NCBI GenBank assembly: GCA_025617375.2
Contig: JAMYGW020000009.1
Span: 1,054,001-1,118,000, forward strand
Reading direction: 5' to 3'
Length of the DNA: 64,000 nt
Source of the DNA: Acarospora socialis
Lineage: Eukaryota > Ascomycota > Lecanoromycetes > Acarosporales > Acarosporaceae
Positions 32,778 through 59,459 of this stretch are shown piece by piece (within the stretch, counting starts at the first letter, position 1; every line of letters starts with the position of its first letter). The notes under the pieces were generated by a model. It ran no database searches. It worked only from the letters and a program-made list of their open reading frames with translations, and was not told the origin of the DNA. A program made the translations under genes and the position numbers.

Positions 32778-33900
32778 ATCATAGTACTAAGTGCATCATA
32801 CAAAATAAAAATACAGATGATGTATCATCATTAAAGTGATCATCAGATTAAGTCAGATCAGAAATTTTTGATTTGATCTGACTTACAGATCAAGTCAGTT
32901 TCAGATTTTTGACTCAACTTAACTCACAGATCAGATCAGAATCAATTTGAGTTTTTTTTGATGATTTTGCACTAGTTTTATACTCATTAACTGACTGATT
33001 ACTAACTCTCTACATCATCTTAATCATAGTTGTGTATACAATCATAATTGTTAAAGAGACACATTAGAAAGACACATTAGAAAAAAATCTTAAAAGACAA
33101 GTTCACATAATCTTCATTATCTAGCTACAAGAAATTTACTAATAACATCATTGTCACAAAACTGAATGTTGTTCAACAAAGATACTTCACTTAATCATGT
33201 ATGTCTTGATCAATTTCATATTCTTTGTCTGTATTGTGACACAATTGACATAAATACAAATCAGATTGATATCTGAAGTTGAGATTAACTGAAATTTGAA
33301 TCATTCAATGTATAGAATCTTGATTACATACTTTTAAAAAACATAACAATGTAGATCTCAGCAGTCTCTTATAATACATTAACTGCATCTTGCTGTTATT
33401 TATAGTTCTGTTTATAGTTCTGTTCAATTTTTTTGATGAGTTTTTGAAAAGAATGTGTGAAAATCAATGATGTTATGAACTTTTAATAGCATTTAATTTC
33501 TTACATGATGCACTCTGAATCTTGAGTGTTAGATTTAAGCATTAAATTAAAAGTAAACTATAACATATCTTCTGACTTCACAACAGAAGTTAATTTGATC
33601 AAAAAAGACTTCTGAAACTTCTTTCTCTTTGTTTTAATCTGCTTCTTGCATTTATTGTATGCTTCAATCTCATTGTTGTATTTGATAAATTTCTTAATAT
33701 ATTAAACTTGTTTCAACTTCTTCTGAACTGAGATAATAGATGATTTTTTTGATGTCTCAGTAGATTTAAATGTGACTTTTATCTGTGTTATCTCACAAAA
33801 CTATATGATTGTTAGAACTGAGCATTAAAATGAATGATTGCTCACTTACTCTAAAATAAGTTAAATGAGAATCTTGTAGAGCTGATCATAAATATAATGT
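32778..33900. other. CG-free spacer with TCAGA-rich repeats
   Basis: No reading frame is supported. At about 32840-32960 the sequence is dense in short GATCAGA/AAGTCAG-like words. A similar but inverted run occurs at 57070-57220. The rest is featureless AT-rich DNA. Confidence 0.5.
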
Positions 33901-34179
33901 TGATGACAATGTTGTAGAATACTGTCTGTTTTGATTGTGATTATAATTGTATAATCATGATTGCTTTATTATGCTGTTATGTTTACATCTGAGATGTAAT
34001 CAGTGAATATTAAACAACAACAACAGTTTATTCATCTCATCACTCATTTCTTCTCTCTCAGCTTCTTTTACATATCATTTTTTTACTTTTGTGATTCATA
34101 TCAGTTTCAATTAATAGTGACAACATCATAAAGTCAGACATGCAAGCAATGTGTAATTTAACAGTTAATTTTAACAATG

Positions 34180-38675: not shown

Positions 38676-39024
38676 TGTTATGTCTCAACTGAGATTTCTC
38701 AGTTATAGAGCTAGAATTTGTGCTCTTTGATATAAAGATTCAAAGATTCTAAATAAACAGTAGCTCTGTATTGCATAACTAGATGAGTTGAACATGATTG
38801 TTTTCATAAGAGAAATGACTCTACTATATAGTGAGCTTGCTTGCTGATCTTGTTGTTGAGCTTATTGAGACAGCTTGTTCATGCAATCTGTTGAGCTTGC
38901 TCATTAAGCTCATCATTAAGCATATTAAGATATCATGTAACTGCTGTCTAAATTTTCTCTGAATATATGCTTTCTGTGTGTATGCATCAGTCTGCTTTAA
39001 GTTCATTTTGATTTGATTATAATA
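38676..39024 (-). repeat. 3' LTR of element 2
   Basis: Starts TGTTATGTCTC. Shares the first ~165 bp with element 1 LTRs, then a different middle rich in short GAGCTTG/CTCATT words. Contains ACTATATAG as in the other LTRs. Confidence 0.88.
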
Positions 39025-39102
39025 TTATTCTTTTTTTCTCAGATGCTAATTCTCTAAAATCTATATAAGTGAGAATATTCACATTGTTCATTGTCAGCAA
39101 TG

Positions 39103-39513
39103 ATGCTTTCTAAAAATTTCAATTGTCTAAGAATTGCAAAGAAAATTCAGATTGATGATGCACTCACTCTGTTTTCTTGTGACTATTGTGTTCATTGTGA
39201 TATCAACTGTTTTGTAATGAAATTTTGATCAAAATGTGATAAGTATACTTGTTGTGATCATTCATGTGTTGATATATTGTGAAAGTCTTTCAATAGAATT
39301 TGTCTTTTGCTTCAAAAAAAAATAAGTAAAGTAAACAGCAAATTAACAGTCAAGCATGCTGAGCTTACTGCACTTTTCTCAAAAATTATACATCTTCAGA
39401 AAACACTGAATCAAACAGATTGCTGTGTTTTGCAAAAGATTAATTGTCTTGCTGCTGAACTTAATAGTGATAATGATGAAACTGAGAATGAAGATTCTCA
39501 AACAATGTTGTAA
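39103..39513 (+). pseudogene. Opposite-strand Cys-cluster ORF remnant, element 2
   Basis: 137-codon frame with a few TGA stops. It reads MLSKNFNCLRIAKKIQIDD, then CDYCVHCDINCF, a second pair with spacing near that of CxxC, and after a TGA (former Trp) KSFNR; then a coiled-coil part (VKHAELTALFSKIIHLQKTL) and the acidic end DNDETENEDSQTM. Same length as the copies in elements 3 and 4. Confidence 0.65.
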
Positions 39514-39589
39514 TTTGTTAATTTGATGTTGTCATTCTTCTGAACTAATATTGATTTCTTTTTTCAAAATATTGAAGTGTTCTCACACA

Positions 39590-42500
39590 GTTCTTAAGAT
39601 TCTCTTTGAGTTTTTAGATATTTTCTAAGATGTTATAATCTTTTCACTTGACAAGATAATAAACTTTCTCACTAATCATCTTCTTCTTTAAAATGTTCTT
39701 GACTTCATATTCTTTGTTGAGTTTGACAGACATTTTAATGATTTGAAGTGATATGAACTGATTGCAGTGTTGTAGCATGAATACATGAAATATTGAATGT
39801 ATTCTCATTCTCTTGAATAAGTTCAACTTATAACTTAATTTCTTGATGTTTCATATGATTCTAAATGATTCAATGCTCTTGTTTTCTAACTTTCTGCTTT
39901 TTTTCTTTGTCTGTATGTTGTTTGTTCTTAAATATATTCTTTTTTTTTCTTTAAATAATTCTGTCTTTATCATTCATCTTGTTTACTGTCTGATTCATTT
40001 TATCAGATCTTGATGCAGTCTTTTTATCTGAACAATATTTAAAATTACTTTCTGACTTCATGATCTGTGTTCTTTGAAATCTCATTATATTTCTGAATTG
40101 TAGTTATAGTTCACATAGAAAGACATCTCTCTCATGATTTTGTTTCTTGCATTGTTGTATGCAAACTGTGTCATTAACAACAGTCATACTCAGTCATTCT
40201 GATTCTTGTTGACATAGTGTTTCAAGTATGTTTTTACTGTCTGATTCATTCATTTGCTTTGTTTATCTGTCTGTAAGTGATATGCTGTTGATATCTTGTG
40301 CTTTATTTTAAGTTTTGTCATAAGCATTTTTCAAAATCTGCTTGTGAACAGCTTGTCTTTATTGATGATAAACTCTTTTGATAGTTCATGATTGCTAATC
40401 AATTCTTGCAGTATAATGTATGTCAATACTGATGCTGTTGCAGTTTCTTTAAATAAAATGAATATTGTGTACTTGATCAATCTGTTCACTATAGTCAATA
40501 TATTATTGAATTTCACTTCTCATGTCAGATCTTTGAACAGTGATAGCTTCATAATGAAGTTCATAGTAATTGATTTTCATGATGCATTCAATGTATTCAG
40601 TTATATTACTTCATTATATTATTTGTCTTAACTGATTCTGTTTCTTCAGTATGAATTGTATACAGTAATTATTTTGATGACTTGATTTTTAAAATTGTTA
40701 ATATTGTGTCTTCTTTGCACTAGATCTTCAGTGCATTTAACTTCTAGATGTTCTTTGACTTTACTGTAATGATATATTTTTATGAGTTTTTTATCTGTCA
40801 AGAAAGCTTGTTCTATCTTATACATTGCTGCTAAGTTCTTCATGAGAATTTTGTTGTTATTTTTGCTCAAAATTTCAACATATATCATTTGTACATCTTC
40901 ATGATCAGATCATCTGCTTAAGACATTTGCTTTGTTATTCTTGTTACTTTTCTTGTAATGAATTTGAAATTTGTAATCTGTCAACTGCTCTATTCAACAA
41001 ATTTGTCATTAATTGAGTTGTTTTGTTGTTGCAAAGTTTTTCAGATTCTTGTGATCTGTGTAGATCTGAATTGACTTGCTTGTTTTTGCAAAATAAGATC
41101 TTCAGTCTTGCAGTGCTTTCACTATTATCAGAAATTTCTTATTATAAATCTTATATCTTTTCTTGAATTCTGATAGTTTTCTAAATTGATATGCTATGAG
41201 TTTCTGTTGTTTCTCTTCAATTTAATATAGATATATGTTTACTGCAAAATCTGAAGCATCAGTTTTCAGTGTTTTCTTGCATGCTGAATTGAGTATTCTT
41301 AGATGTGCTGTTTCACTAAGACTTCTCTTTAATATATAAAATGCATTTTTCTGCTCTTTATTTCAATGTTATTCTTCATTTTTGTGTGTTAAATGTATCA
41401 GTGATTTCACAATTCTTATGTAATCTGATACAAACTTTTAATAATAGTTCATTAATTCTAGAAAGATCTGTACTTTCTTGATTCATTTCAGTGTTGATTA
41501 GTTTCTGACTGCTTTCATTTTCTTTAAATTTTTCTCAATTTGTTCAGATTGAATAATGTAGTCTAAAAACTCAACTTTCTTGATTTCAAATCTACTTTTT
41601 GATTTTTTCATGTACAGAGCTCTCTTCTTAAACTTTGTCAATATTTTCTGCATATGCTCACAGTGCTTTTTAAGATCTTCTGAATATATCAGAATATCAT
41701 TGAGATATATGATCATAAAATCATCAAGATATTCTCTCAATATGTTGTTGATTAATCTCTGAAAAATCACTGATGCATTTTTCAACTCAAATAACATGAC
41801 AGTGTATTCATAGTGTTCATATCACATTCAGAATGCTGTTTTTCATTTTTTATCTTTTTTCATTCTGATTCAATAATAAACATCTTTAAGATTTAAGTTC
41901 ATGAATCACTTAGTCTTGTTTAATTAATCTTGCAACTCTTCTATCAACAGTAGTGAATAACTATCTTGATGTGTTATCTTGTTGAGTTGTCTGTAATTGA
42001 CACATAGTTGTTTTTTGTCATTCTTTTTTGATACAAACAAGATTAGATATTCTGCTGATGACTTCAATGATTTAATGAATTTTCTTTTCAGATTTTTGTC
42101 AAGATAAGTTCTTACTTTCTTGAGTTGATCTTCACTCATTGAGTATAATGACATTCACTTAGATTGCTTTTCATTCAATAGCAATATTTCATGATTTCAT
42201 AACTTATACTCTGATAAGCTCATTTCTGATTGTTCAGAGATCTTATATGTGTTTTTGACTGCACATATTTCTTTTGTAACTTAGTCAATTCTTAGATTCT
42301 TTTTACATAATCAGAGCATTTCTAGTATCACATCATATCTGATTAATCTCATAACATCAAATGTTATTTTTTGTGAGTTTTTAAGAATTGAGATCTTCAC
42401 ACAGATTTTCTCATTAATTCTTTTGATGATTTCATTTGTCATATGTATGTTGAATGAACAGTGCACTCACTGTGTCACTAATTCTAACATATCAACTACT

Positions 42501-44300
42501 TATCAGTTCATAATGTTACTGTTTGCTTCAAAATCTATTAACATGTTAATTCAGTGTTCATTGATTGTAATCTTTGTTCATATTTAATGATCATTGTCTA
42601 ATTTTTGAAACATTGCTAGCTTCTTATTCTTTAGTCTTGTTGAGAAAGTTCTTTATTTTTTGTTTCATTTAACTGTTCAGTTCATCTTCAAAACTCTTAA
42701 AATCATCTTGATTCTTTTCTGATCATAAAATTCACATACTTTAAACTGTACTGCTCAATGCATCTTTCTGAGTGTAATCAGAGTTCATACTGATTATATT
42801 TTATCTGCAACTGACTTTTAATGACTCTTACTCTTTGTAGAAATTCAGATGATATGTATTCTTCACTGAAAATTCATCTATCTTCATTCTGTGTGATGTA
42901 TTCTTCAGATAAGTATATTTCAATTTTGTGACTTTTTGTTTTTTATACAAGAGATTTTGACAATACTGCATCATCACTGCTGAGACATTCATCTTTAACA
43001 ATTATCATCAACTTCTTTAGCTGATCATATGTTTTCTGTTCTTCTGTACTTTTGTATTGTGCTTTTTGTTTTTAAGTTTGCATTTTTTACTCAAGCTTTT
43101 GCTTTTTAAACTGAAGCTTTTTTTCTTTCAACACTCAATGTTGATTTTCAGAGTGTTGATATGCTATCTTCAGTTTTATATTGACTTTTCACTGATCAAC
43201 TTTCTCTTGATCTGCATTCAAATTCAAGATAATTCAGATGCTATTACTGTAGTCTTTTTCTATTTGAATATCACAAATATCAGTTTCTTTGATCTCAGTT
43301 TCTAGAACACATAGTTCTTTCTTCACAGTGTTATCTGATTTAGATCATTCTGTGACATCATAAGTTTTTTATTTCTGATATGACTTTTTTGAATAATATT
43401 TAGTTTCTTTCTTGCTGCTCATGTGAATTCAACACATGTTGTTGTAGCAAGCTGTTCAGTTAAGATTGTTGTGCATTACTTTCTTAGTTATAATTGCAGC
43501 TTTCTTTCTTTCTTTTCTGAATTTCTTGCAGTTCTGTGCAAGATATTCAGTAATATCACAGTTATAGTACTTCTGCATCTCTTAGTAACTTGAAGACTTT
43601 TCTTTTGAGAATCATTTCTTTTTTTATGATGCTTTCTCTGATCTTTGTATTGAAAATCAATCTTATTTCATCATATTGAGATTCATAGAGTTCAGATAAT
43701 GTCATTTTTAATTTTCTCTATTAACTTATTTTGTTCATCTCTGATGTCAGTAGTCTCTTCTTTTTATTTGTTGCTTTCATTGACAATCATTTATTATGAT
43801 TGTCTTGTCAATAAGTTCTTGCAGATCATCTGATCTGTCACTTTATGCAATTTCATCTTTAATAGATTCTTTCAAGCTTCAATAGTAAGCTGATGCTAAC
43901 TGATTCAAATTTCATTGTGTAAGTATCACAATCTGTTGAAACTCTGTCACATACTTGACTGCAGATTCTTTTTGTTGTAATGTGTGAATTTTTCATTTCA
44001 TCACACATTTCTCATCAACTATCTCAAAGATTCTTCTCAATTCTTCTTTGAACTGCATTCAGTTTTCTATGCAAAAAGTATTTTGTTCTTGATTAAAAAT
44101 GCTCTTAATCATGAACTTGTTGAGCTGCAGTTTGATTCAATCAAATGTCATGTTCTTCATGTAGAATGTTGTGAACAAAACTCTGTCAATATTGCTTTCA
44201 AACTTCTTCTGATTGAAGTCAACATACAGATTAATTTGAACAAGAAATTGTCTCAAATTTCATTGATCTCTCATAAAGTTCTCTGAAGTCTTGACTTTAG
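39590..44300 (-). pseudogene. Broken gag-pol of element 2
   Basis: Same domain order as element 1. The chromodomain reads EYEVKNILKKKMISEKVYYLVK then TGA (former Trp) KDYN, a clear chromodomain core. RT and RNase H parts are at 40.9-42.2 kb (NYRQLNKITHQDSYSL, FQRLINNILREYL). The gag frame around 43.9-44.3 kb is recognisable only by similarity to elements 1 and 5. Confidence 0.85.
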
Positions 44301-44408
44301 ATACTTTGTGATCAACATTGACTATCTTTGTTGATTCAGTGCTCTGTGACACATTATCTGAGATTGATTCTTTGAATAACATTCTTTATATCATAAAAAT
44401 GTTCAAAG

Positions 44409-44757
44409 TGTTACATTTCAACTGAGATTTCTCAATTATAGAGCTAGAGTTTGTGCTCTTTAATATAAAGATTCAAAGATTCTAGATAAACAGTAGCTCT
44501 GTATTGTGTAACTAGATGAATTAAATATGATCATTTTTATAAGAGAAATAACTCTACTATATAGTGAGCTTGTTTGCTGATCTCATTGTTGAGCTCATTG
44601 AGACAGCTCATCTATGCAATCTGTTGAGCTTGCTTGTCAAGCTCACTGTTGAGTATATTGAGATGTTATGTGACTGCTGTCTAAATTTTCTCTGAATATA
44701 CACTTTCTGTGTGTACACATCAGTTTGCTTTAAGTTCATTCTGACTTAATTGTAACA
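44409..44757 (-). repeat. 5' LTR of element 2
   Basis: Starts TGTTACATTTC and ends TTGTAACA, followed by the AGTTA duplication. Differences from its partner are mainly transitions. Confidence 0.9.
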
Positions 44758-45133
44758 AGTTAACTCAGATACAATCATTAAGATTAATACTGCTCACAAT
44801 TCTGACTTTGAAGTGTCATCAGTTAACAAACTGTCAGAGAATAAAGAGTGTTTATTTATCATTATTATCTCAGACAATAATGATGCATCTGATGAGTGTT
44901 TGAGCAATTTTCATGAGAAGAAAATACATAAAGCATTAGAAAAAAACATTAAAATGAGTTCTGACTTAAAGAATGATGATTTGTTCAATACAGACATTAA
45001 TGTTGTCATTATACAGTCATCATCAGCTGTTCAATCAATCAATATTAAACTCTCTGTCATCACAACAGTCATAAATGCTACTCAATTCACTACTTCAAAT
45101 TCTATTACTACTGTTTCAGCATCTGCAAATTAA

Positions 45134-45661
45134 TTGTTTCTTAAGTTATTATGAAAATTTGTTCTTCTTCAAACATATTCATCAACACTGAACATATTGT
45201 GAGATTAACTGTTCAGTCTGATTAAATCAACAACAATATCTCAAGAACTCAAAGTAATGCAACATAACTCTTGAAGTGAATCAGATAAAGATAGTGACTC
45301 TGATGAATCATAAGTTAGAAAATGATCTTGTTTGTGAGCAGAATTTTAACAATTATTTTTAATGCATGTGATGTAATCATGAATTCATGTTAAACTCATG
45401 TCATCTTTGAATTTATTCTTGATCAATGTGTTCAAATTTCTCTCATTAATATACATGATGAATCTTGTAGAATGAAAACTCAGTACTGAAGTGTAACATT
45501 GTATGAGTGATGCATTGCTCAAGTTTGCACTCTAAAAAGAAAAAAAAGTTCAATAATTAGAGCAGTAATGTTGTTATTAACATAGTCTTCTCATTTAGTT
45601 AATGCTATTGACTCATTGTAGAATATTAAGCATCATATTATGACAGAGTGAGAACAGTAAG
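45134..45661. other. Spacer after hAT tail
   Basis: CG-free DNA between the hAT stop and the 3' end of the minus-strand gene X copy A. Nothing recognised. Confidence 0.45.
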
Positions 45662-47280
45662 TCAAGATGTATATACATTAGATTTACACATTAAAATCAT
45701 TTCACATTCTTTTTCTGTTGTCAATATCAGTAGATGATCAAGACACATTTGCAATGAAGAACATCTTATTTGCATTAAGTTATTATCTATGTCATTTTTC
45801 TCACTGATATTGTTCTTTTCATTATTTTCAATCTTAAAATTCAGCAATAAATCATCAAAGAGCTCAGCAGCACTCAGAGACTCTTTTTTCATATTATTGA
45901 TCACAAAGTTATTTAATTCTTTAATGCTGAACAACTTCTCATTTTCATTTTCAGACAAACAGATTGTCACATCTTCAGTTGTGACTTGCTTTACACTGTT
46001 AAAAGTTATCACATCTACAGTTCAAACATCTTCAAGAACAGTAGAGATAGTGATGACAGAAATAACATAGTTATGTGTAGTAGTAAGTACTTTATGCTGT
46101 TAAAATATATTGTTAAATTACTTACTTTACTTTTATATTTCTGATATTTTCTGAATTCATAATTTGCTGTTAAAATTCTTACATATTTGCTCAAGAATCA
46201 GAATTCTCAGTTAGTTCAAGATTTTGCTGTTCAGTCATGAACTCAATTTACTTTCAGCATCAAATGAAAAAATCAAGATTTTATATTGTAACTTAATCAA
46301 TCTGAGAGTGAATCTACATATATCAGTTAATTTTAACACTCAATTTTAACAGACATCATTAACTATCTACTTCTTCAGACACATTAATCTTCTGTATTTG
46401 CTCTGTCTTTATTTTTTCTGTAATCTTCAAGTCTTTTTTGACATGAAGTGCATTGATGAGTCTTTATTGTATTTTGTTTTCATTTTCAGTGTGATTTATC
46501 TGTTCTTCAAGTCATTTCACTGTTAACTGTTAATAACATCTAATTAAATGACTGACTATCATATCATTCTATTCTTTATAAAAACAGAACTTCATTAGAG
46601 TTTTTACTGCATCTATCTCTAATGTCTCATGTTTATCTTGATCTGCTTTAAGTCATTTCATTAATCTTTTTAGTTTCAGCATTTTGTGATGCTTAATGTT
46701 GCAATCATGTTTTCTTACTTGTTCAATAGTTCAAGATCTAAAAGAAAGATTTTTTCAATAAATGTGTACAGCAATAATACATAAATGTTAAGAATAGTTC
46801 TGCTTCTTTTTACACACTGATTTTACATCAGACTTAATGCTTCATTCTGACATTCTTGATGTAAATAATTGATCTTTGTGTTTCTGCAAGATTCTGATTG
46901 TTGTTGCTGCAGTATTGAAATTTTTAATTAACTATACAACATATCAGTCAGTGACATGTTGAAGAACATTAAAAAATATATTAAAAACTATAAATGTAAA
47001 GAGTATTATAATATCAGTCACTTCTTCAGTCTAAGTTTTTTCTTTATCAAATGTTTCTGCTGCAGAGTCTGATTGATGATTGATTGATTATGCTTTGATT
47101 TATTAATAAAAGTAAAAAATGATGATGACTTCTTACTTAACTTATCTGCAGTTTCAATTATCTTGACTCTCTTCTTATTTATCTTGAATTTAACACTCTG
47201 TTCTAATGCACAAGTTTTTGTATCAGATGTTTCTTGTTGTGCTGAGAAGAAATGCTGATTTGTTGAAGAGTTTGTTGTTT
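45662..47280 (-). pseudogene. Gene X copy A, unknown acidic/coiled-coil protein
   Basis: Minus-strand multi-exon remnant. The last exon is an open 116-residue frame (46012-45662) with SVKQVTTEDVTICLSENE, similar in place and pattern to LIEQNSDYNLKTVKSIQIYLSENE of copy B. Upstream exons around 46380-46700 give a helical segment (LEEQINHTENENKIQ, LHVKKDLKITEKIK) that aligns by eye with copy B (LEKEIQCIEHKIQ, LKNEKKDFEIVTT). An intron is evident at about 46091-46113 (minus GTAAGT...TTTTAACAG). Function unknown. It is divergent from H3-like copy A, the same arrangement as copy B. Confidence 0.55.
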
Positions 47281-47526
47281 AAAAGATAAATCATTGTGAA
47301 AGATGCACATACATACTGTTGTTTGACTACAATATTTGTTTGTTTTGATCAAATTCACTCAGTGTGTTAATGTGAATGTTAAACAAAACAATATAATCTT
47401 AACTTCACATCAAGAACATCACTACATCACAAATCACAACACTACAACACACTGACACATCAAGCAACAGATATGAACTCAAAATGTTTTGTTTTTAATG
47501 TACAGTTTTAACAGTTAACATTTAGA

Positions 47527-48224
47527 ATGACAATGTTTAGAGAACTAAAGAGAAAAAAGAAGAAAATATTCATCAAGTTCAAGTCTGTGCTCAAGCTCAA
47601 GCTCAATTCTGCACTTAAGCTCAAGACAGTCACAAGAAATAAATTCACTGCATTGAATACAACAAACACTCAGATCACTGCAGATTTGCAGACAGTAAAT
47701 TTTTAGACTGTATTTGATCTACAATCAGTGAACATCTCATCAGCTACATTTCAAAAAAAAAAAGCAGTCATTAAAACAATTAACACAACAGTCTGCAAAG
47801 ACAATCATCAAAAGACATGCTAAGTCAGACAGTATGTATTACTTTATAATATTCTTCAATTTTAACAATTTTATTTAACACACTCTTAATTAATGACTAT
47901 TCTAAAAGAGATTCAACAATATCAGAAGAATGTCAATTTGTTGATATTAAAACTTTCTTTCTCAAGAGTTGCTCAACAAATTTATCTTTTCAATGAGAAG
48001 TTATAAATTTCAGATATTTACTGACAAACAAGTGTCTTACAAATGTTGCAGAAGACTGTGAAGAAGTTCTTGATGATATATTTGAAAGATATAGTGTGAT
48101 TGTTTGAAACTTCTTCAATACAAGATTCTAATGACTACTAGACATTAATTTCTGTGCTATTCATGTCAAGTGTGTTACAATTTAAATCAAAGATATGATC
48201 TTAATTGAGCAGTTTTACAAGTGA
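47527..48224 (+). pseudogene. Histone H3-fold gene copy A (CENP-A-like features)
   Basis: Three exons are suggested: 47527-47831, about 47930-48088 and 48142-48224. Exon 1 is a basic tail (RELKRKKKKIF, Lys/Thr-rich, TGA/TAA at former Arg/Gln). Exon 2 holds the alpha-N/alpha-1/alpha-2 part: ILKEIQQYQKNVNLLILKL, SFSRVAQQI, a long loop 1, then *QTSVLQMLQKTVKKFLMIY, where * is TGA from a likely TGG. Exon 3 gives DINFCAIHVKCVTI*IKDM, matching the H3 DTNLCAIHAKRVTI-KDIQ signature. Loop 1 is about four residues longer than in canonical H3, and Trp precedes Gln, as in CENP-A. The second donor GGTATAG appears mutated to GATATAG. Identification is by eye. Confidence 0.7.
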
Positions 48225-48544
48225 CTCTCATCTTATAACATTAAATCATCTGAGTTTACACACTAGATTAAAATATATGATGTAGTCAAACTTGTAGTTT
48301 GCAAATAAGAGATGACTTTAAGATCAGCATCAAATATTATGTAGTATGCTTTTATCATGACAAAGTAATAAGTTTATCTTGAAAATCTAAAGAAATTGTA
48401 GACACTAGCAAGCAGACTGAGTTTATTAACATCTAATCTTTTCATTTTCAATTCATTAAAATTAACATTAACAACTTCTGCTTTCTCAATCTTCTAGATA
48501 GCTGAGAAACACATAAAGTGTTAGAATGATGTGTTAAAAAAAAG
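48225..48544. other. Spacer between H3-like copy A and gene X copy B
   Basis: About 320 bp of CG-free sequence between the two gene pairs. No supported frame. Confidence 0.45.
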
Positions 48545-48797
48545 AGTTCACTGAACTTACAGAAAAAAATACTGATCTGTGACATTTATTAAGCTCAATA
48601 TGTTCTTCATCACTTTCTGTAACATGATCTTGATTTTTTTTATTAGCTTGATCAACATCATTCTCTTAATCATCATCATCATCATGATTTTCATCATTAT
48701 CTTCATTGAATTCACAATTCTCATCATCATCTTTATTGAACTCACAATTCTCATCATCATCTTCATTAAACAGATACAAAGATGAATCATTTGAATG

Positions 48798-49169
48798 TGT
48801 AATATTCTAATTTGAGCTTTCTTGAGTATGTAGAACTAAGAGTTTATGCTTATGAATATAATGACTGATCTGAAATAATTCTGATCTTTAACTTTTAGAT
48901 GATTACTTAAGTTGAATATGATTGTTTTCATAAGAGAAATGATTCTAGTATATAGTGAGTTTACTTGTTGATCTTACTGTCAAGTCTGTCAAGACAGCTT
49001 GCATATGCAATTTATTGAGCTTGCTCATCAAGCTCATCATTGAGCATGTTAAGATGTCACATGACTGCTGTTTAAACATTTCTTGAATATTTATTCTCTA
49101 CACATATGTATCAGTTCATTTTAAGCTCATTCTGACTTAATTGTGATACATTTTCACTTGATCATAACA
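48798..49169 (-). repeat. 3' LTR of element 3
   Basis: 372 bp; the first third (ATTCTAATTTGAGCTTTCTT) resembles the element 5 LTR in reverse, the rest resembles elements 2 and 4. Confidence 0.88.
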
Positions 49170-49247
49170 CTATTCTTTTCTTCTCAGACACTAGCTCTCT
49201 AGAGTTTACATAAGTGAGAATATCTACATCATTTATTGTCAGTGATG

Positions 49248-49658
49248 ATGCTTTTTAAAAATTTCAATCATTTAAGAATTACAAAGAAAATTCAGATCAG
49301 TGACATGTCTGTTCTGTTTTTTTGTGATTATTGTGTTCATTGCAACATCAATTGTTTTGTAATGAAATTCTGATCAAAATGCAATAAATATATTTGCTGT
49401 GATCATCTGTGTGTCAGTGTATTGTGAGAGTCTCTTAATAAAACTTGTTTTTTTCTTCAAAAAAAAATAAGTAAAGCAAACAGTGAGTTGATAGTCAAGC
49501 ATGCTGAACTTACTGCACTCTTCTTAAAAATTGTACATCTTCAAAAAATGCTGAATCAAATAAATCATTATGTTTCACAAAAGACTAACTGTCTTGCTGC
49601 TGAACTTAATAGTGATAATGATGAAACTGAGAATGAAGATTCTCAAACAATGTTGTAG
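49248..49658 (+). pseudogene. Opposite-strand Cys-cluster ORF remnant, element 3
   Basis: Exactly 137 codons like the element 2 and 4 copies. MLFKNFNHLRITKKIQISD, CDYCVHCNINCF, a second Cys group (CNKYICCDHLCV), TGA at the former Trp, and the acidic end DNDETENEDSQTM. It has only a few in-frame TGA codons. Confidence 0.65.
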
Positions 49659-49739
49659 CTTGTTGACTCAATATTGTCATTTTTTTGAGTTAACATTGAC
49701 TTTTTTTCTCAAAACATTGAAGCATTCTCACACAGTTCT

Positions 49740-52700
49740 TGAGATTCTCTCTAAGTTTTCAGATATTTTCTGAGATGTCATAATCTTTTCATTTGATGAG
49801 ATAGTGAACTTTTTCATTAATCATTCTCTTTTTTAAAATATTCTCAATCTCATATTCTTCTTTAAATTTGACAGATGTTTTAATAATTTGAAGTGATATG
49901 AACTGATTGTAGTGCTGTAACATGAATGCATGAAATACTGAGTGTATTTTCATTTTCTTGAGTAAATCTAATTCATAACTTAATTTCTTAATGTTCTGTA
50001 TGATCTTGAATGATTTAATGCTTCTGTTTTTCAGTTTCTTGCTTTTTCTTTTAGTTTGTATGTTATTTATTCTTAAATATATTCTTTCTTCTTCTTTAAA
50101 TAATTTTGTCTCTGTTGTTTACTTCATCTGCTGTCTGATTCATTTCATTAGATTTTGATGTAGTTTCTTTATTTGAGTGATATTTAAAATTACTTTTTGA
50201 CTTCATAATCTGTGTTCTTTGAGATCTTGTCATATCTTCAAATTATAATCATAGTTTATATAGAAAGATGTTTTTCTTGTGATCTTGTTTCTTGTGTTGT
50301 TGTATGTGAATTGTGCTGTTGATAATAGTCATACTCAGTTGTCTTGACTTTGATTGACATAATGTCTCAAATATGTCTTCACTGTTTAATTCATTCATTT
50401 GTTCTGTTCATCTATCTGTAAATAATATGCTGTTAACATCTTATGCTTTATTCTGAGTTCTGCTGTAAGCATTTCTTAAAACTTGCTTGTAAACAGCTTT
50501 TCTCTATTGATGATAAATTCTTTTGATAGTTTATGATTGTTAATTAATTCTCACAGTATAATGTACATCAATACTGATGCTGTCACAGTTTCTCTGAATG
50601 AAATGAACATCATGTACTTAATTAATCTGTTTATTATGATTAATATACTATCAAACTTCACTTTTCATGCTGAATCTTTTGATGATGATAACTTCATAAT
50701 GAAGTTCATGATAACTGACTTTCATGATGTATTTAATGCATTTAGTTGTGTTACTTCATCATATTGTCTATCTCAATTGATTTTATTTCTTCAGCATGAA
50801 TTGCACACAGCAATCATTTTGATGACTTAATTTCTAAAATTGTTGATATTGCATCTTCTTTGCATTAGATTCTCAGTGTGTTTAACTTTTAGATGTTCTT
50901 CAATTCTGCTGTAATGACATATCTTAATGAGTTCTTTATTCATTAAGAGAGCTTGTTTCATCTTATATGTTGCTGTTAAATCTTTGATGAGAATTTCTTT
51001 GTTATTTTCACTCAGAATTTCAGCATATATCATTTGTACATTTTCATGATCAGATTGTCTGCTCAAGACATTTATTTCATTATTCTCATTATTTTTCTTG
51101 TAATGAATCTGAAATTCATAGTTCACTAACTGCTCTGCTCAACAAATCTGTTGTTAGTTAAATTGTTTTGTTGTTGCAAAATTTCTCAAGTTCTTGTGAT
51201 CTGTGTAAATCTGAATTGATTTGCTTGTTTCTGCAAGATAAGATCTTCAGTCTTGTAGTGCTTTCACTATTGCAAGAAGTTTCTTGTCATAAACTTCATA
51301 TTTTTTCTTGAGTTCTGATAGTTTTTTAAATTAGTACACTATAAGTCTCTGCTGCTCATTCTCAATCTGATATAAATATGTTTTTATTGCAAAATCTGAA
51401 GCATTGATTTTCAGTGTTTTCTTGCATACTGAATTGAATATTCTCAGATGTGTTGTTTCACTAAAACTTTTCTTTAATATGTGAAATGCATTCTTCTGTT
51501 CTTTATTTTAATGTTATTTTTTGCTTTTGTGTGTTAAATGTGTCAGTAATTTCACAATTCTTACATAGTTTGATATAAACTTTCAATAATAGTTCATTAA
51601 TTCTAGAAAGATCTGTATCTTCTTGATCTTTTTCAGTGTTAATCAGTTTTTGACTGCTTTTATCTTTCTTAAATTCTTCTTGATCTGTTCAGATCAAATT
51701 ATATAGTTTAGAAATTTCATTTTCTTGATTTTGAATCTGCTTTTTAACTTTTTTGTGTACAGAACTTTTTCTTTGAGCTTCACTAATATCTTATGCACAT
51801 ATTTGTGATGCTTCTCAAGATTCTCTGAGTATATCAGAATATCATTAAAATATGTGATTACAAAATCATCAAGATATTCTCTTAATGTATTGTTGATCAA
51901 TCTTTGAAAGATGACTGATGCATTCTTTAACTCAAACAGCATAACAGTGTATTTATAATGTTCATATTGTGTTCAAAATGTTATTTTTCATTCTTCATCT
52001 TCTTTCATTCTGACTTGATAATAAATGTTCTTAAGATTTAAACTTGTGAATTACTTAATCTTGCTTAATTGATCTTGCAACTCTTCTATCAACAGTAGAA
52101 AATAACTGTTTCAATGAGTTATCTCATTGAATTGTCTGTAATTGACACATAGTTGTTTTTGATTGTTCTTTTTTGATATAAACAGAATTGAATATCTTGT
52201 TGATGATTTTGATGATTTTATAAATTCTTTTTTAAAATTCTTGTCAAGATAAGTTCTTACTTTCTTGAGTTGATTCTTACTCATTGAGTATAATGACATT
52301 CACTTAGATTGCTTTCTGTTCAATAGTGATATCTTATGATTTTATGATTTATGTTTTGATAAACTCATTTCTGATTGTTTGAAAATCTTATATGCATCTT
52401 TGACTGTACATATCTCTTTTGTGACTCAATCAATTCTGAGATTCTTTTTGTGCAATTAAGACATCTTTAGTATTGCATCATATTCAATTGATTTTATAAC
52501 ATTGAATGTTATCTCTTGTGAATTTTCAAGAATTGAGACTTTTACACAGATTTTCTCATCAATTCTCTCAATGACTTTATTTATCATTTGTATGTTAAAT
52601 GAACAGCACACTCACTGTGTCACTAATTTTAACATGTTAACTACTTGTTAACTCATGATATTACTGTCTGCTTCAGAATTCATCAATGTGTTGATTTGAT

Positions 52701-54640
52701 GTTCATTAATTATGATTTTGATTCATATTCAATAATTATTGTCTTGTCTTTGAGATATTGCTAGCTTCTTGTTCTTTAATCTTGTTGAGAAAGCTTTTTG
52801 TTTTTTGATTCACTTAATTATTTAACTTGTCTTCAAAGTTCTTGAAATCATCTTGATTTTCTTTCAATCATAAAATTCACATACTCTAGACTGTGCTGTT
52901 CAATGCATCTTTTCAGATGTAGTTGAAGTTTATACTGATCATACTTTATCTGCAACTGACTCTCAAAGACTTTTATTCTTTGCAGAAATTCAGATAATAT
53001 ATATTCTTCACTGAAGATTTATCTGTCTTCATTCTGCATGATATATTTCTCAGATAAGTGTATTTTGATTTTGTGATTCTTTGTTTTTCACATAAAAGAT
53101 TTCAGTATTGATTCTTCTATAACTGTTTGTACATTCTTTATGAGATTGTTGAATTTTCTTTGTATCTCTGCTTTCTGATTTTGAGCTTTTTGCTTTTTCT
53201 TTTACATTGTCTTGTAATTTGATGTCACTTCTTTCTGAGCACTTAAGTCTTTCTTAACTTTTGTTTAATACTTCTTTAAGAACTTTGTCTTGACATTGTC
53301 TGAACTTTCTTTTGTGAGTGTATTGCTATCAGAAAATATTCATGATTTGTCAATCTGAAATTCATGATCATCAATCTCTTCAATGTTATCTTTAAGAACA
53401 TTGTTTTCTTTCTTAACATCAAGAATTCTTTTTTTAATAAAAGTAGTTAATTCTTTTTTGTAGATTAATTAACTCATTGTGTTATATCTGTCTTTCACAT
53501 CTTTGTGTAATTTCTGAAGATATTATCTAACTCTGTTTTTTGTGTTTATGTGTACTCTGCATATGTCATCATAACAGACTGTTTAGTTAAGAGTGTTGTG
53601 CACTATATGTGTATTCTTCTTGACTGTCACTACAACATTTTTTCTTTTCATTTGAGATCTGTTGCATTCTTGAGCAAGATGTTTAAGTTTTTTGCAGTTG
53701 TAATATGTTTGCATCTCATTTTGCAATGTTGTCTAAGACTTAGTGAACTGCTCTGACTGACATTCATACTATGTTTATTTAGTCTTTTATAAATTCTGAT
53801 GATGCTTCTTGATTATATTGAGATTTATAAAATCTGTTTTTTCATATCTTATTGATAAAATATATCACTTTGTTCATGATTAAGAGCTTTCTTCTTAATC
53901 TTTTACTATAGATGACATTCAATATTTCTTTTGTTTCATCTGTCATTCTTACTGACAACTGTCAATATTAATATTTAAATTAATCATTTTCTGAAGATTG
54001 TCTGATTGTTCTGTTCAGACTATTTTGTCTTTAATGAACTTTTTCAATTCACAGTAGTACTAATAAATGAGTGCTTCATTGTTTTATCTGATAAGTATTG
54101 CTAATCACTGAAACTTAATGATGTATATTGTCACTGATTCATTCTGTTGCAAGATGTAAATCTGTTTCTTCACTGTTCTTTTTTCATTAATCATTTTGAA
54201 AATTCTTTTTAGTTCTTTTTTAAACTGTCTGTAGTTGTTGAATATAGACTTCATGTTGATGTTGCATTTTTTGTATTTCTTTTCTAGAAACTCATGCAGC
54301 TTAAAATTGACTCAATTGAAGACTGTATTCACAAGATAGATTGTTGCAAACAGTGTCTTTTCTTGATTGATTTAAAACTTTAATTGATTAAATTCAATGT
54401 ACAGATCAAGCTTAGTCACAAAGACTCACAGCTTTTCTCATTCTTCATCAAAGATATTTGATATCTGTATCTTAGATGCACTTAAAGATAGTTGTATAAC
54501 TTGAGTTAACATCATCATTAATTGTGTCATCATTCTATCTGAAGTAGATAATAGAGATGAATTTGTCTGAACTTGTCTCAAAAATAAGATTGAGATGTTT
54601 TTTTGTGTGTCAGACATCATACTCATTATATTGCAAAAGT
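49740..54640 (-). pseudogene. Broken gag-pol of element 3
   Basis: Minus-strand remnant with chromodomain/integrase end near 49.75-50.5 kb, RNase H around 50.8-51.1 kb (NYEFQIHYKKNNENNEINVLSR), RT at 51.7-52.3 kb and gag at 53.5-54.6 kb. The gag/protease part (53.1-54.3 kb) is the most diverged from elements 1 and 2. Confidence 0.8.
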
Positions 54641-54648
54641 ATTCAAAG

Positions 54649-55020
54649 TGTAACATTCTAATCTGAGCTTTCTTGAGTATGTAGAACTAAGAATTTATGT
54701 TTGTAAATATAATGACTGATCTGAAATGATTCTGATCTTTAACTTTTAGATGATTACTTAAGTTGAACATGATTGTTTTCATAAGAAAAATGATTCTACT
54801 ATATAGTAAGTCTACTTGCTGATTTTGTTGTTGAGTCTGTTGAGATGACTTACACATGCAATCTGTTGAACTTGCTTGTCAAGTTCATCATCAAGCATGT
54901 TGAGATGTCATGTGACTGCTATCTAAACATTTCTTGAATATTTGTTCTCTACACATACACATTAGTTCATTTTAAGCTCATTTTAACTTAATTGTGACAC
55001 ATTCTTACTTGATCATAACA
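54649..55020 (-). repeat. 5' LTR of element 3
   Basis: 372 bp, TGTAACATTC...GATCATAACA. Differs from its partner mainly by transitions. Confidence 0.88.
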
Positions 55021-56437
55021 GAATACTCAATCTTCTTCTCTTTTTTCTTGTCTGAATTTACAATTCAGTTATCATTCTTCTCACTGTTTAAAGCTTCATT
55101 ATTTACTTCATTCTCTGATAAATAAATCTGAATACTCTTCACAGTTTTAAGATTATAATCAGAGTTTTGTTCAATCAAATTCTTAATGATGACTGAAGCT
55201 GAGATAGTATAGCTGAGTAAGACAGTAAGTGTTTATGCTTGTTAGAATGTTTCATTAAAATACTTACTCAACATTCATGTTCTTGATATTTTTTGAATTC
55301 ATGATCTGCTGTCAAAGTTGTTTCATATGAGCTTGAGAATTAGAGTTGTTCACAATCTCAAGACTTTGTCAGTTCACTAGATATTCAATTCTTTTTCATC
55401 AACAAATGATCAAATTAAGATTTTAATTCATCAGATTATCAAACTGTAAATAAATCTATAAACATATATTAGTTCTAATGTGTTGTTTTAACATATTGTT
55501 CTATTATAATGCTCTGTTACTTACATCTGAAGATAAGATTTTCTTTTTTAATTTGATGTTTTTGTTTGTTGTGACAATCTCAAAGTCTTTCTTCTCATTC
55601 TTCAGATCTTTGAGCTCTGCTTTGAGTTAAATTTTATGTTCAATACATTGAATTTCTTTCTCAAGTCACACAGCTAACTTCATCAGTGCATGTTGTGCAT
55701 GAAATAGTGAAATTATATCACTTTGTTCTGCTCAATATCATCACTTCTTAAAATCTTTAATAACATCAGTTTTCATCTACATTCTGATATTCTCATCAAC
55801 ATCAATATACTTTTTGTTCTTTCTGAATTTCTCAAAAACATAGAACTTTGCATTTCAATTATGTCTGAGAGCTTAATCACAATGTTTGAACATAGAAAAT
55901 AAATTTTTGCATCAAATGCAATCTGATTCTGTACTGCAGTGTTTTAAATAATTATTTTTTGATTTATGAAATATGTCAAAGTCAGATTCTATTGCTTGAT
56001 CAGATTTCTTAAATGTATCAATTTCATGTTCTTCTTTTTTTCTTTGTTTTCAAATTCAATTTGCAATGCTGTCATTCTCATCATTCTCTTTCTGAAAGTG
56101 AAGAGTCAGCTTGAAGTTTATTAGAAAAATGTGTTAAAAATACTGATTCAGTCTTCTTGATTTGATGCTTCTTCTCTGTTGACATTTTATGAATTGTTGC
56201 ATAATATTTGATGAATATAGAATGTTTATGAGACATAAGATAATAGAGTATAGTGTCTGAAAACTTGTAAGAAATTAAATAATGTTTAAGTTACAACAGA
56301 AGATGAATTATCTGTTGACTGAAATACTGATATGTTTCACTGTCTGAAATACAGTAATATGCATTTCTCAGTCTTCTTCATCACATGATACAAATTGAGA
56401 AAATGACTTCTCATTCTCTTCAATTCACTTAAACACA

Positions 56438-56865
56438 ATGACTAGACAAAAGAGATGTGCAAAGTCAAGTAGTAAGTACAATCACTTTAATATTCTAATG
56501 CTTAGTTTTAACATACTTGCACACAGAAATTACTTTACAAGAAATACATCACTATCAGAAGTTTGCAGATTTGTTGATTTCAAGCTAATTCTTCACTTAA
56601 CTGATCAGAGCAATCTGTACAAATGACAGTCAGATATGTCTTGATTATATTTACTGACAAAAAGATGTCATACAAGCTTTACAGAAGACTGCTGAGATCT
56701 TCTTGATGATTTATTTTGAAAATAAAACTTCATTATTAAGTCTTCTTGATAATCAGTCTTCTGATTCAAACAATAAACATAAATCTCTATATTATACATG
56801 TTAAGCAGATTATTATTCAAACAAAGAATATAACTCTTGTGTGAAAATTTTATGATTGTCTGACA
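56438..56865 (+). pseudogene. Histone H3-fold gene copy B (short tail)
   Basis: Exon 1 (56438-56471) encodes only MTRQKRCAKSS; a 55-bp intron (GTAAGT...CTAATG...CACACAG) follows, and exon 2 begins at 56527 in frame with ITLQEIHHYQKFADLLIS. After two stops comes LIRAICTND, a long loop 1, then *QKDVIQALQKTAEIFLMIYFEN, where * is TGA from a likely TGG. After an insert that may be a second intron, INLYIIHVKQIIIQTKNITL matches the H3 TNLCAIHAKRVTI-KDI-L signature. The tail before the histone fold is about 12 residues, much shorter than canonical H3 (about 45). By-eye alignment; the fold call rests on three independent conserved blocks shared with copy A. Confidence 0.68.
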
Positions 56866-59459
56866 TCTTTTAAATTGATGCAAGATGTGAAACAATAAAA
56901 TAGTTTAAGCTAGTAATAAAGTTATCAACTTATCATGTTATCATGTTTGATTGTTAGAAATAATTGTTAGAAATGTGCTCTACATAGCATATGAAATATT
57001 ATATACTGAACATGATGCTTTATGAGATTTCATAAGTCATATATGATGAATGTACACAAAATATATATCACATAATTGACTCAGATTGATCTGCAAATCA
57101 GATTAAAGCAATCAGACTGATTCTGACTTAATTTGTAAGTTAAGATTTCTGATCTGATTTGTGAATTGAGTCAGAGTTAAGTCAAATCAAGTCAGAGTCA
57201 GTCTGACTCAACAGTCACTTTAATTATCATCAGAAATAAAAAAGATGATAAAGACTACTAAATTTGATCACAAGATCAAAGCTTCAGCAGTATATAATAA
57301 ATAAGTTACTATTTTTTTTGCATTTTTAAGATCTGAGTGTCTTGTATGAATAAAACACTCTATTATAAATTCTCAAAGTTTTTATATACTTTATTGCAAA
57401 GCTTCAAGATACTATATATTGAATATTGTATTCTATAGAACTTAGTCAAGAAATATTTTAGTTTAGTGCAGCTAATGATTTTGTATGATGTGTAAAAGAT
57501 GAGAAATCTGTTAATGATAAATTTAAATCTGAATTTAGATCTGAATCAAAATTGTGAGATTTTGTTGATGTGCATGAAGACTGCATGAAAATAATCAATA
57601 TATATTATTAAAATAATATTGTACAACTTACAGCAGCTGTCTTCATCTTAACAGAAGATGAATTGATATTTAACTTGATCTTTAGTTTATTTTTTCTCTT
57701 GATTTTCTTAATGAGTAATTTGAACAACTTTTTCTTCTTAATAGTCTCTTTCTTTATAAACTCAACATCATACAACACAGCAGTCTTCTTTTCAGCTATT
57801 AAAAACATTAAATAGTTGCTGAATGTGAACTTAAAATAAGTTAACAAATTCAGAGTTGTTGTGATGTTCTTCACACTATATTTAAGATAAATTGAATCTT
57901 CTTTGCTTCAATCATTTGCAAATATAAGAGATGTAACATTCTGTACAATATGATTTCATTAATACATGTTAAATACAAGATTTGTGCAAATAAAGATCTT
58001 GAGATTGTCAAAAATATAATTATAGAGTTGAATACTGCATCTTTCTAAAAACAAGTACATATAAGCTGTTATACAATCAATGTTGAATGCAAAAAACAAT
58101 AAATAAAGCATTTTATATCAATATTTTCACATTCTACATACTTCTTGATCTCATGAAGTCTATTATGATTACTTTTATAGATACAAGTTTCTTGACATAG
58201 AGTCACTATCATACAATATACTTTAAATACAGCAATATCAATAACAACAGTGCTGCATGAGTCTAAAGAACTGATGTTTATGTATGAATGTGAACAAGAA
58301 GTATTGCAAATTTATATATTAGCTGCTTGTCATGCAGTTTCTGCTGTAATAAAAATGTATGATAATATTGATGATGTTGTTGTACAATGTGATGAAATTG
58401 AAATGATATTGAAATCAATGATTACTTGTTGACTGAAAGTGTTTAAATTTTTGACATCACATCAATCACAGTACTGCTTAATTTTTCATTCTGTATATGA
58501 TTTATTTGTACTTTGACATCACTCAATAAATGTGAATTCAGACATTCTGATATCATATAACACATGTACTTTGAAAGAAAGTTACATAGAAGATATTTCA
58601 GTCAGATAAGTTCTTCTCAAGATCTTCTGACTATATATTGAAATTTGATTTTTTTTTGAGAATGTTTATTTCATCATCATTTTATACAATTTTTAAATCT
58701 TATTTCTGATCTACTAACTGAGCACTAAACTCATTTTCTGCAGTCTGTTCAATTTTGATTAAAAATATTTTTCTGCATAATTTAACTGATTTAATCAGAA
58801 TTGTTAAGAAGTGCAGTGTTCTAGCTGCTTTTATAGTCTTAGTTGAAACTAGTGTCAGAAATTGCTCATTATTCATATAGTCTGTGTGACAGAACATGTG
58901 AATAAACAATTTTTACAACTTACATTGATCACAGTTAAGTCAACAGTGTATGTTTCACTAAATAGACAGTTAGTCAGCAGTATAGCACAAGTATTCTTTT
59001 TATTTTTCAATAAATTCAATAAATTATGAACTCAAATTAACAAGAAACTTCTCAGAGAAAGTGCATACTGTTTTAGTGTCTCAACAGCTTGATATGAGAA
59101 CTCAAAGATTGAGCAAAACAAACATTACTGATCATCAATACAGAGCTTTAAGATTAAACAAAACAATATTCTCAGCAGCTTAATACAGAATCAAAACAAA
59201 CATTCTTGATCATCAATACAGAATTTAAAGATTGAGCAAAATAACATTCTTAACACTTGATATGAGACTTTAAGATTGAGCAAAACAAGACTTACTGACA
59301 ACTTAATATGATGTTCAACAGTTAAGCAAATAAACATACACACTTCTTCTTTCTCTTATTTACATTATCTTCTTCTGTACATCTTAATACTTTATTTTAT
59401 TTATTTTTTATATTATGTGCTGACTGTCATCAAAAGTTACATCATGAATTTTGACAACT
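56866..59459. other. CG-free stretch with inverted TCAGA-rich repeats and short frames
   Basis: At 57070-57220 short TCAGA/AAGTCA words are dense, in inverse orientation to those at 32840-32960. A basic 88-residue minus frame (57874-57608, KKKKLFKLLIKKIKRKNKLK) and a 60-residue plus frame (58250-58432) are open but have no recognised family. The word CATCATACAAAAT occurs inverted at about 57480-57492 and direct at 32797-32809. A tandem repeat lies at 59085-59335. Confidence 0.45.
59085..59335. repeat. Degenerate minisatellite
   Basis: Units of roughly 50-60 bp built on GATTGAGCAAAACAAACATT and GATCATCAATACAGA recur about four to five times with substitutions and gaps. Confidence 0.6.

What the first reader, a model, noticed from the sequence alone, without database searches (positions are those of the whole stretch)
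47527..48224. Histone H3-fold gene, CENP-A-like, inside a hypermutated repeat block
Three conserved H3 blocks are readable: L-x-EI-x2-YQK-x3-LLI, W-Q-x4-LQ-x2-x-x2-FL and N-x-CAIHVK-x-VTI-x2-KD. Loop 1 is about four residues longer than canonical H3, and a former Trp precedes the Gln, both seen in centromeric H3. A broken H3-like gene among transposons is unexpected; histone genes are not usual cargo or relics in fungal repeats.
Basis: partly seen in the sequence, partly recalled or inferred. Interest (0 to 1): 0.88.

Follow-up and report, generated by a model that had tools for sequence, protein, structure and literature searches.

The report
Histone genes inside a dead transposon
The damaged histone H3-like gene is real and is one of three carried by a dead 12-kb jumping gene (hAT transposon) in what looks like a lichen-type fungus; histone-carrying transposons are already known from other fungi, but this one carries more histones, two of them with a loop as long as in centromere histones.

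Summary
Window 47527-48224 is a hypermutated histone H3-fold gene ("H3-A"). Its profile matches H3/CENP-A chains in the PDB over 86 residues (best E 2e-13, Cnp1); 13 of its 34 database matches bear a centromeric-H3 name, two a plain H3-type name. It lies in a 12.07-kb hAT transposon (window 32832-57222, 8-bp target duplication, split by two nested LTR-type insertions) repeated at about 11 loci. The element carries two more H3-fold genes, H3-B (33330-33500, minus) and H3-D (56529-56865, plus), and its transposase (about 36591-38650). A second, diverged hAT family has H3 genes at the matching left and right positions. Loop 1 is 14 residues in H3-A and H3-D, as in CENP-A, and 10 in H3-B, as in H3. 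Purine/pyrimidine comparison, blind to the hypermutation, shows third-codon-position excess, so the genes probably evolved as proteins before dying. hAT elements carrying H3 are published (Pyrenophora, Pseudocercospora and relatives): a known kind. New here: three H3 genes per element, CENP-A-length loops, an extra intron in H3-B/H3-C, and a host that looks like a lecanoromycete (nearest CENP-A: Acarospora, 94%). CENP-A ancestry is not established.

The parts
32832..57222 (+). hAT transposon, family A (12.07 kb unit, here split by two nested insertions)
   Evidence: Sharp-ended repeat unit shared with other chromosomes; ends and target duplication
32824..32831 (.). Left target-site duplication ATCATCAT
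   Evidence: 7 of 8 identical, 8 of 8 purine/pyrimidine-equal to the right copy
57223..57230 (.). Right target-site duplication ATTATCAT
32832..32851 (+). Left terminal inverted repeat TAAAGTGATCATC...
57203..57222 (-). Right terminal inverted repeat
33330..33500 (-). H3-B exon 1 (alphaN to alpha2, loop 1 of 10 residues as in H3)
   Evidence: (L009); better to H3 than to CENP-A profile (copy from C1)
33273..33331 (-). H3-B intron, GTATGT...CAG, 59 nt
33187..33272 (-). H3-B exon 2 (loop 2, alpha3, stop)
36591..38650 (+). hAT transposase relic (approximate limits, three frame pieces seen)
   Evidence: 36-45% identical to family C transposase whose C-terminal part is PF05699; position mapped
38676..44757 (.). 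Nested LTR-type insertion (ends repeat, 347 bp, 87%)
47527..47835 (+). H3-A lysine-rich N-terminal tail exon (finding, first part)
   Evidence: length differences of 27 and 24 nt among copies keep the frame, 1-2-nt differences in a poly-A run do not
47890..48087 (+). H3-A histone-fold exon 1 (alphaN, alpha1, loop 1 of 14 residues, alpha2)
48088..48140 (+). 53-nt insert at the place of the intron of H3-B/C; ends in TAG in the window copy; no GT donor that would give the needed frame (by eye)
48141..48224 (+). H3-A exon 2 (loop 2, alpha3, stop)
48797..55020 (.). Nested LTR-type insertion (ends repeat, 373 bp, 87%)
56529..56720 (+). H3-D exon 1 (loop 1 of 14 residues)
56776..56865 (+). H3-D exon 2 (NINLYIIHVKQIIIQTKN...)

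Best explanation
Shown: the finding is the decayed copy of a histone H3-fold gene that is a regular part of a 12-kb hAT DNA transposon. The element carries three such genes, one near each end and one internal, plus its transposase. Supported, not proven: these genes changed as protein-coding genes before they died, because differences that the hypermutation cannot make pile up at third codon positions. Inferred: the hAT lineage kept its own histone variants, with H3-A and H3-D given or retaining a CENP-A-length loop 1. Inferred: after transcription the variants were built into nucleosomes, most simply to make the element's chromatin poor in the marks of ordinary H3 and so harder to silence or easier for the transposase. 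Shown: every H3-A and H3-D copy aligned here (eight each) carries internal stops in a hypermutated setting. The structural identity is near certain; the mechanism step is a proposal (about 0.3).
For: H3 identity. Element: shared sharp ends; 8-bp duplications that match exactly or differ only by C/T or G/A in the window, C1, C13, C5 and C3 copies and in the C2 copy (by eye), 6 of 6 family A copies with both ends in hand; inverted ends. hAT: 7 of 7 genome matches to PF05699 overlap family C transposase copies; family A aligns to that protein in three pieces, E 2.5e-42, 1.9e-22 and 2e-15, with purine/pyrimidine (RY) mismatches 133/100/221 by codon position, p 1e-11. Shared design: H3-B and H3-C sit about 500 bp from the left end on the minus strand, H3-D and H3-F near the right end on the plus strand. 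Coding constraint: 10 of 10 transposon-transposon gene pairs have most RY mismatches at position 3 in exon 1; H3-A against H3-D 10/5/22 over both exons, p 0.001. Shared extra intron: GTATGY donor in 6 of 7 H3-B and 4 of 5 H3-C copies tried, AG acceptor in 9 of those 10; host H3 and host CENP-A run on without an intron at that place.
Against: No intact copy was found, so expression and function cannot be shown. Within family A the 3 transversion sites inside the H3-A fold (of 285) are not at third positions. Exon 2 compared with H3-C is less clear: H3-A 5/4/8, H3-D 5/4/6. H3-A and H3-D have no GT at the place of the H3-B/C donor, so their splicing is unexplained. Part of the third-position excess could predate capture if each gene was captured separately. 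Dhillon et al. read their case as a passive capture of a host transcript. PF04937 (DUF659) gave no match. One of two family C copies examined has no matching target duplication.
Confidence: 0.88

Rival explanations
1. Passive transduplication: a hAT captured host H3 (and perhaps CENP-A) sequence once or several times, the copies were passengers of no use, and hypermutation erased them. This is the published reading for the Mycosphaerellaceae cases.
For: Known precedent (PMC6710886, PMC3538342). All eight aligned copies each of H3-A and H3-D are dead, as are the 14 AT-rich relics. Transversions between family A copies are few (219 of 12073 sites over 6 to 8 rows), as after a single burst.
Against: Two hAT families with transposases only 36-45% alike hold H3 genes at the same two positions and strands. 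Third-position excess holds among transposon genes. Three H3 genes per element, and an intron that neither host gene has at that place.
Confidence: 0.35
2. H3-A and H3-D are captured host CENP-A; H3-B, C, E and F are captured H3. Two kinds of histone were picked up separately.
For: Loop lengths 14, 14 (A, D) against 10, 17, 10 (B, C, E) (H3-F 10 by reading). Profile preference persists with the loop cut out: A +1.2 to +6.6 and D +3.1 to +5.5 bits towards CENP-A; B -9.3, C -14.4, E -6.9.
Against: Best tree joins all eight transposon rows (95/86) and A and D do not sit with CENP-A. RY distance of A to host CENP-A (37) is hardly less than to host H3 (41) and more than A to D (27). Insert at the same codon in A, B, C and D.
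Confidence: 0.3
3. Chance resemblance: an AT-rich helical translation that happens to look like H3.
For: Hypermutated, AT-rich DNA. The one structure model was poor (pLDDT 60.6) and gave no significant fold match.
Against: E 2e-13 over 86 residues, 0 reversed hits against 29 forward, three genes in one element and nine loci of H3-A.
Confidence: 0.01

Closest known systems
H3-carrying hAT of Pseudocercospora fijiensis and relatives (PMC6710886)
   Same: hAT with 8-bp target duplication, 20-bp inverted ends, H3-like genes in AT-rich hypermutated blocks, all copies dead, one or two H3 per element, second copy with a 16-residue insertion
   Different: There about 9.5 kb, 784 H3-like copies, Mycosphaerellaceae, read as capture of an intron-less transcript. 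Here 12.07 kb, three H3 genes, CENP-A-length loop 1 in two of them, an intron in H3-B and H3-C, host looks like a lecanoromycete. The word beginnings centromer, CENP and CenH3 have 0 occurrences in that paper's main text. Whether the 16-residue insertion is the same intron could not be checked
H3L hAT of Pyrenophora tritici-repentis (PMC3538342)
   Same: hAT dimer domain plus a divergent H3-like gene between inverted ends; the paper says H3L belongs to neither H3 nor CenH3
   Different: 5.6-kb and 2.3-kb forms, one H3L each, nearly identical, mostly open copies with ESTs; here the aligned copies are destroyed and there are three H3 genes
Repeat R25 of Stagonospora nodorum (PMC3017866)
   Same: Hypermutated repeat with weak DNA-transposon and histone H3 similarity
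   Different: Reclassified there as a presumably endogenous gene region; no element structure given in the passages seen
CENP-A (Cse4/Cnp1)
   Same: Loop 1 of 13-15 residues; best PDB match is Cnp1
   Different: Transposon-borne; no tree support for ancestry; localisation unknown

Membership tests
Histone H3 fold | Significant match over at least 80 residues to H3-type sequences | tested here: met
   86 residues, E 2e-13; 54.5 and 68.9 bits
Histone H3 fold | Three-helix histone fold by structure prediction | tested here: inconclusive
   One model, of the related H3-C from L016 with its one stop read as W and its intron read through: three helices, but pLDDT 60.6, pTM 0.36; 0 of 13 Foldseek hits at E<=0.001. 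H3-A itself was not folded
Canonical H3 | Conserved ARTKQTARKS-type tail (recalled) | tested here: not met
   Tail reading is lysine-rich but not of that sequence (by eye)
CENP-A | Loop 1 longer than in H3 | tested here: met
   14 residues; reference sets: H3 10 in 73 of 82 measured, CENP-A 13-15 in 77 of 79 measured (79 of 240 proteins could not be measured by the pattern; the sets are hits to H3-C and to host CENP-A)
CENP-A | Groups with CENP-A in a tree | tested here: inconclusive
   Not in best tree; held-together tree not rejected, p-AU 0.119 (7 of 14 chosen CENP-A references were dropped by the pattern, among them the two Kwoniella rows)
CENP-A | Centromere localisation | not testable with these tools
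   No intact gene; no ChIP data
CENP-A | Trp before the first Gln of alpha2 | tested here: inconclusive
   Stop codon there in 8 of 8 aligned copies
hAT superfamily | 8-bp target-site duplication | tested here: met
   6 of 6 family A copies with both ends; family C 1 of 2
hAT superfamily | Short inverted ends beginning TA[A/G]NG (consensus recalled) | tested here: met
   TA[A/G][A/G]GTGATCA-type at both ends
hAT superfamily | hAT transposase with C-terminal dimerisation domain | tested here: met
   Directly in family C; in family A only through similarity to family C, no transposase Pfam hit of its own in 11 of 12 frame halves scanned
hAT superfamily | DUF659 domain | tested here: inconclusive
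   PF04937 0 matches, but none in the 14 controls either
H3-carrying fungal hAT (Dhillon 2019) | H3-like gene between hAT ends, multiplied and hypermutated | tested here: met
H3-carrying fungal hAT (Dhillon 2019) | Common descent with the Mycosphaerellaceae elements | not tested
   Their element sequences are in a supplement, and supplement look-ups are capped at 0 here

The most novel reading that the evidence does not exclude
This hAT lineage maintains its own set of histone H3 variants as working parts, including one or two that evolved a CENP-A-like loop 1, to control the chromatin of the element or of its target. That would be a transposon-encoded nucleosome system, possibly one that mimics centromeric chromatin.
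Probability: 0.25. Interest if true: 0.88.

Novelty: new variant of a known kind. Interest (0 to 1): 0.56.

Why it matters
Histone H3 in hAT elements has been treated as an accidental capture in a few Dothideomycetes. Finding it in what looks like another class of fungi, in two diverged hAT families, at fixed positions, in up to three copies per element, with signs of protein-level selection and two CENP-A-length variants, suggests a lasting partnership. If so, transposons may carry their own nucleosome parts, which can be tested in species where such elements are still open.

Tried and rejected
Chance similarity: rejected. Host H3 or CENP-A pseudogene outside a transposon: rejected by the sharp unit, its ends and its duplications. 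A stand-alone single relic: rejected by three genes per element and about 11 loci.

Centromere position: of the 8 contigs that hold family A, 7 hold it in one place or cluster and C2 in two separate places (0.99 Mb and 2.82-2.97 Mb). No centromere map exists here, so the idea was left open.

Structure prediction: low confidence and no significant fold match; not used. The DUF659 search gave nothing in the genome or the controls. H3-E (C13:317064) is near a Gypsy-type RNase H; in its 10 kb only weak matches to families A and C were seen (E 2e-6 to 7e-4), none in the transposase frames, so its carrier is unknown. The first tree had a pattern error that dropped all 24 reference rows; one search replaced it, with 7 of 24 reference rows (all CENP-A) still dropped because the pattern did not fit them. 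One search failed on a wrong option and was redone. Codon-position test within family A: too few transversions to decide. A pattern for an H3-E donor found nothing, and one of 7 H3-B and one of 5 H3-C copies did not fit the donor pattern.

Full report
What is there. The window is G000:C9:1054001-1118000 of a 31.1-Mb, 38-contig genome. Its first 26 kb are about 45-53% GC; the rest is about 27-33% GC. The finding reads as a histone H3 fold in two frames: 47890-48087 (alphaN, alpha1, loop 1, alpha2) and 48141-48224 (loop 2, alpha3). A lysine-rich stretch at 47527-47835 precedes it. Stops occur inside.

It is a histone. Searching the genome with PF00125 gave 22 matches at E<=0.001. By reading their translations, L001 is the host H3 and L002/L006 the host CENP-A; 14 of the 22 are stop-bearing AT-rich relics of 26-34% GC. 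With stops as X, the window's H3-A scores 54.5 bits against an H3 profile and 68.9 against a CENP-A profile; four reversed controls score -0.6 to -2.8. The H3-A profile finds 172 distinct PDB sequences at E<=0.001, 60 listed; the best is the centromeric H3 Cnp1, 86 residues, E 2e-13, followed by H3 chains. Against 5.8 billion proteins, 34 of 3202 candidates pass, led by five Kwoniella histone-fold proteins; 13 of the 34 bear an 'H3-like centromeric' or Cse4 name (some cut short), one is named histone H3, one histone H3/H4, and the others have no telling name. The related H3-C alignment finds H3s: 725 of 2722 candidates pass, and among the 120 listed I saw no centromeric name.

It belongs to a transposon. 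Comparing chromosomes shows one unit of about 12.07 kb with sharp ends, bounded by inverted ends of the type TA[A/G][A/G]GTGATCA and by 8-bp duplications. The duplications are identical in C1, C13 and C5, and differ only by C/T or G/A in the window, C2 and C3 copies (C2 by eye). In the window the unit runs 32832-57222 and holds two nested insertions whose ends repeat (347 and 373 bp, both 87%). H3-A occurs at nine loci (11 matches, two of them pieces of one copy, one being H3-D itself). The transposase region of this family A occurs at about 11 loci (30 matches, 15 of them at 85% or more; the tool calls such counts lower bounds).

Which transposon. A second family, C (about 11.4 kb, about 18 loci; 31 matches), carries the hAT dimerisation domain: 7 of 7 PF05699 matches overlap its transposase copies. 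Family A shares this protein in three pieces at 36-45% identity, E 2.5e-42, 1.9e-22 and 2e-15. Family A itself gave no transposase Pfam hit in 11 of 12 frame halves of the C1 copy. DUF659 was not found, but the controls were silent too.

Three histones per element. Family A carries H3-B near the left end (minus strand), H3-A inside (plus) and H3-D near the right end (plus). Family C carries H3-C at the same left position and strand, and H3-F at the same right position and strand, in 2 of 2 copies scanned. Another relic, H3-E, lies elsewhere (L018). H3-B and H3-C have an intron after alpha2 with a GTATGY donor in 6 of 7 and 4 of 5 copies tried, and an AG acceptor in 9 of these 10; host H3 and CENP-A have no intron there. 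H3-A and H3-D have inserts (53 and 55 nt in the window copies) at the same place without a GT where H3-B and H3-C have their donor; by eye H3-A has no donor that gives the needed frame and H3-D only an atypical one further in. I cannot explain this.

CENP-A-like or not. Loop 1 has 14 residues in H3-A and H3-D, 10 in H3-B and H3-E, 17 in H3-C; H3-F reads as 10 (by eye). In reference sets, H3 has 10 in 73 of 82 measured and CENP-A 13-15 in 77 of 79 measured (79 of 240 not measured; the H3 set are hits to H3-C, the CENP-A set hits to host CENP-A). Profile preference without loop 1 is +1.2 to +6.6 bits for three H3-A copies and +3.1 to +5.5 for two H3-D readings towards CENP-A, and -9.3, -14.4 and -6.9 for B, C and E. 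A 75-column tree without the loop puts all eight transposon rows together (95/86). A and D held with CENP-A is 9.6 log units worse, not rejected (p-AU 0.119); shared hypermutation bias may pull the rows together, and 7 of 14 CENP-A references were lost to the pattern. So H3-A is CENP-A-like in form; descent from CENP-A is open.

Were they genes? C-to-T and G-to-A hypermutation does not change purine/pyrimidine coding. In that coding 10 of 10 transposon-transposon pairs differ most at codon position 3 (48 codons each). H3-A against H3-D over both exons gives 10/5/22 (p 0.001), H3-B against H3-C 8/8/20 (p 0.005), the transposases 133/100/221 (p 1e-11). Exon 2 against H3-C is weaker: 5/4/8 for A, 5/4/6 for D. 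Pairs are not independent, and part of the signal could predate capture. Within family A the H3-A fold has 3 transversion sites in 285, the tail 14 in 302 (p 0.012; against the right half of the element p 0.067), but the three are not at third positions.

Host and prior work. Over its 109-residue fold region the host CENP-A is 94% identical to that of Acarospora aff. strigata; the next lichen-fungus entries are mostly 88-92%. Acarospora is a lecanoromycete. That the host is one too is inference from one gene. A better-scoring hit in that list, a Brassica napus entry at 68% identity, looks odd and was set aside. H3-carrying hAT elements are published: PMC6710886 (abstract, whole Results, first part of Discussion read), PMC3538342 (passages) and a related repeat in PMC3017866 (passages). 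The searches listed no paper that, by title and start of abstract, treats such an element in lichen fungi or a CENP-A-like transposon histone; most subscription papers are not in that library.

Verdict. A confirmed, interesting relic of a known kind in a richer form. Identity is firm; the working role is proposed, not shown.

Noticed in passing
window 28001-64000: CpG is absent: 0 in every 2-kb step (about 36-53 expected each), and 0 in all eight family A copies aligned; copies often show CA in one and TG in another at the same site (173 CA/TG and 230 CA/TA/TG sites). The hypermutation here removes every CpG, besides CA/TA and TC/TT changes.
   Followed up: partly
window 38676-44757 and 48797-55020: Two LTR-type insertions nested in the hAT element, end repeats 347 and 373 bp at 87%.
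   Followed up: partly
L041/L043 (C5:146267-157610) and L039/L044: Family C hAT (about 11.4 kb) has a block of internal repeats next to H3-C and a second H3-like gene at its right end.
   Followed up: partly
L018, L045 (C13:317064-317234): H3-E, an H3 relic with canonical loop length near a Gypsy-type RNase H; its carrier is unknown.
   Followed up: partly
L014 (C12:1149210-1149491): Intact histone-fold gene that looks like a CENP-T-type protein (named by eye, not tested).
   Followed up: no
window 48557-48835 (-): Open stretches beside H3-A, one acidic and Asp/Asn-rich (48666-48806), of unknown meaning.
   Followed up: no
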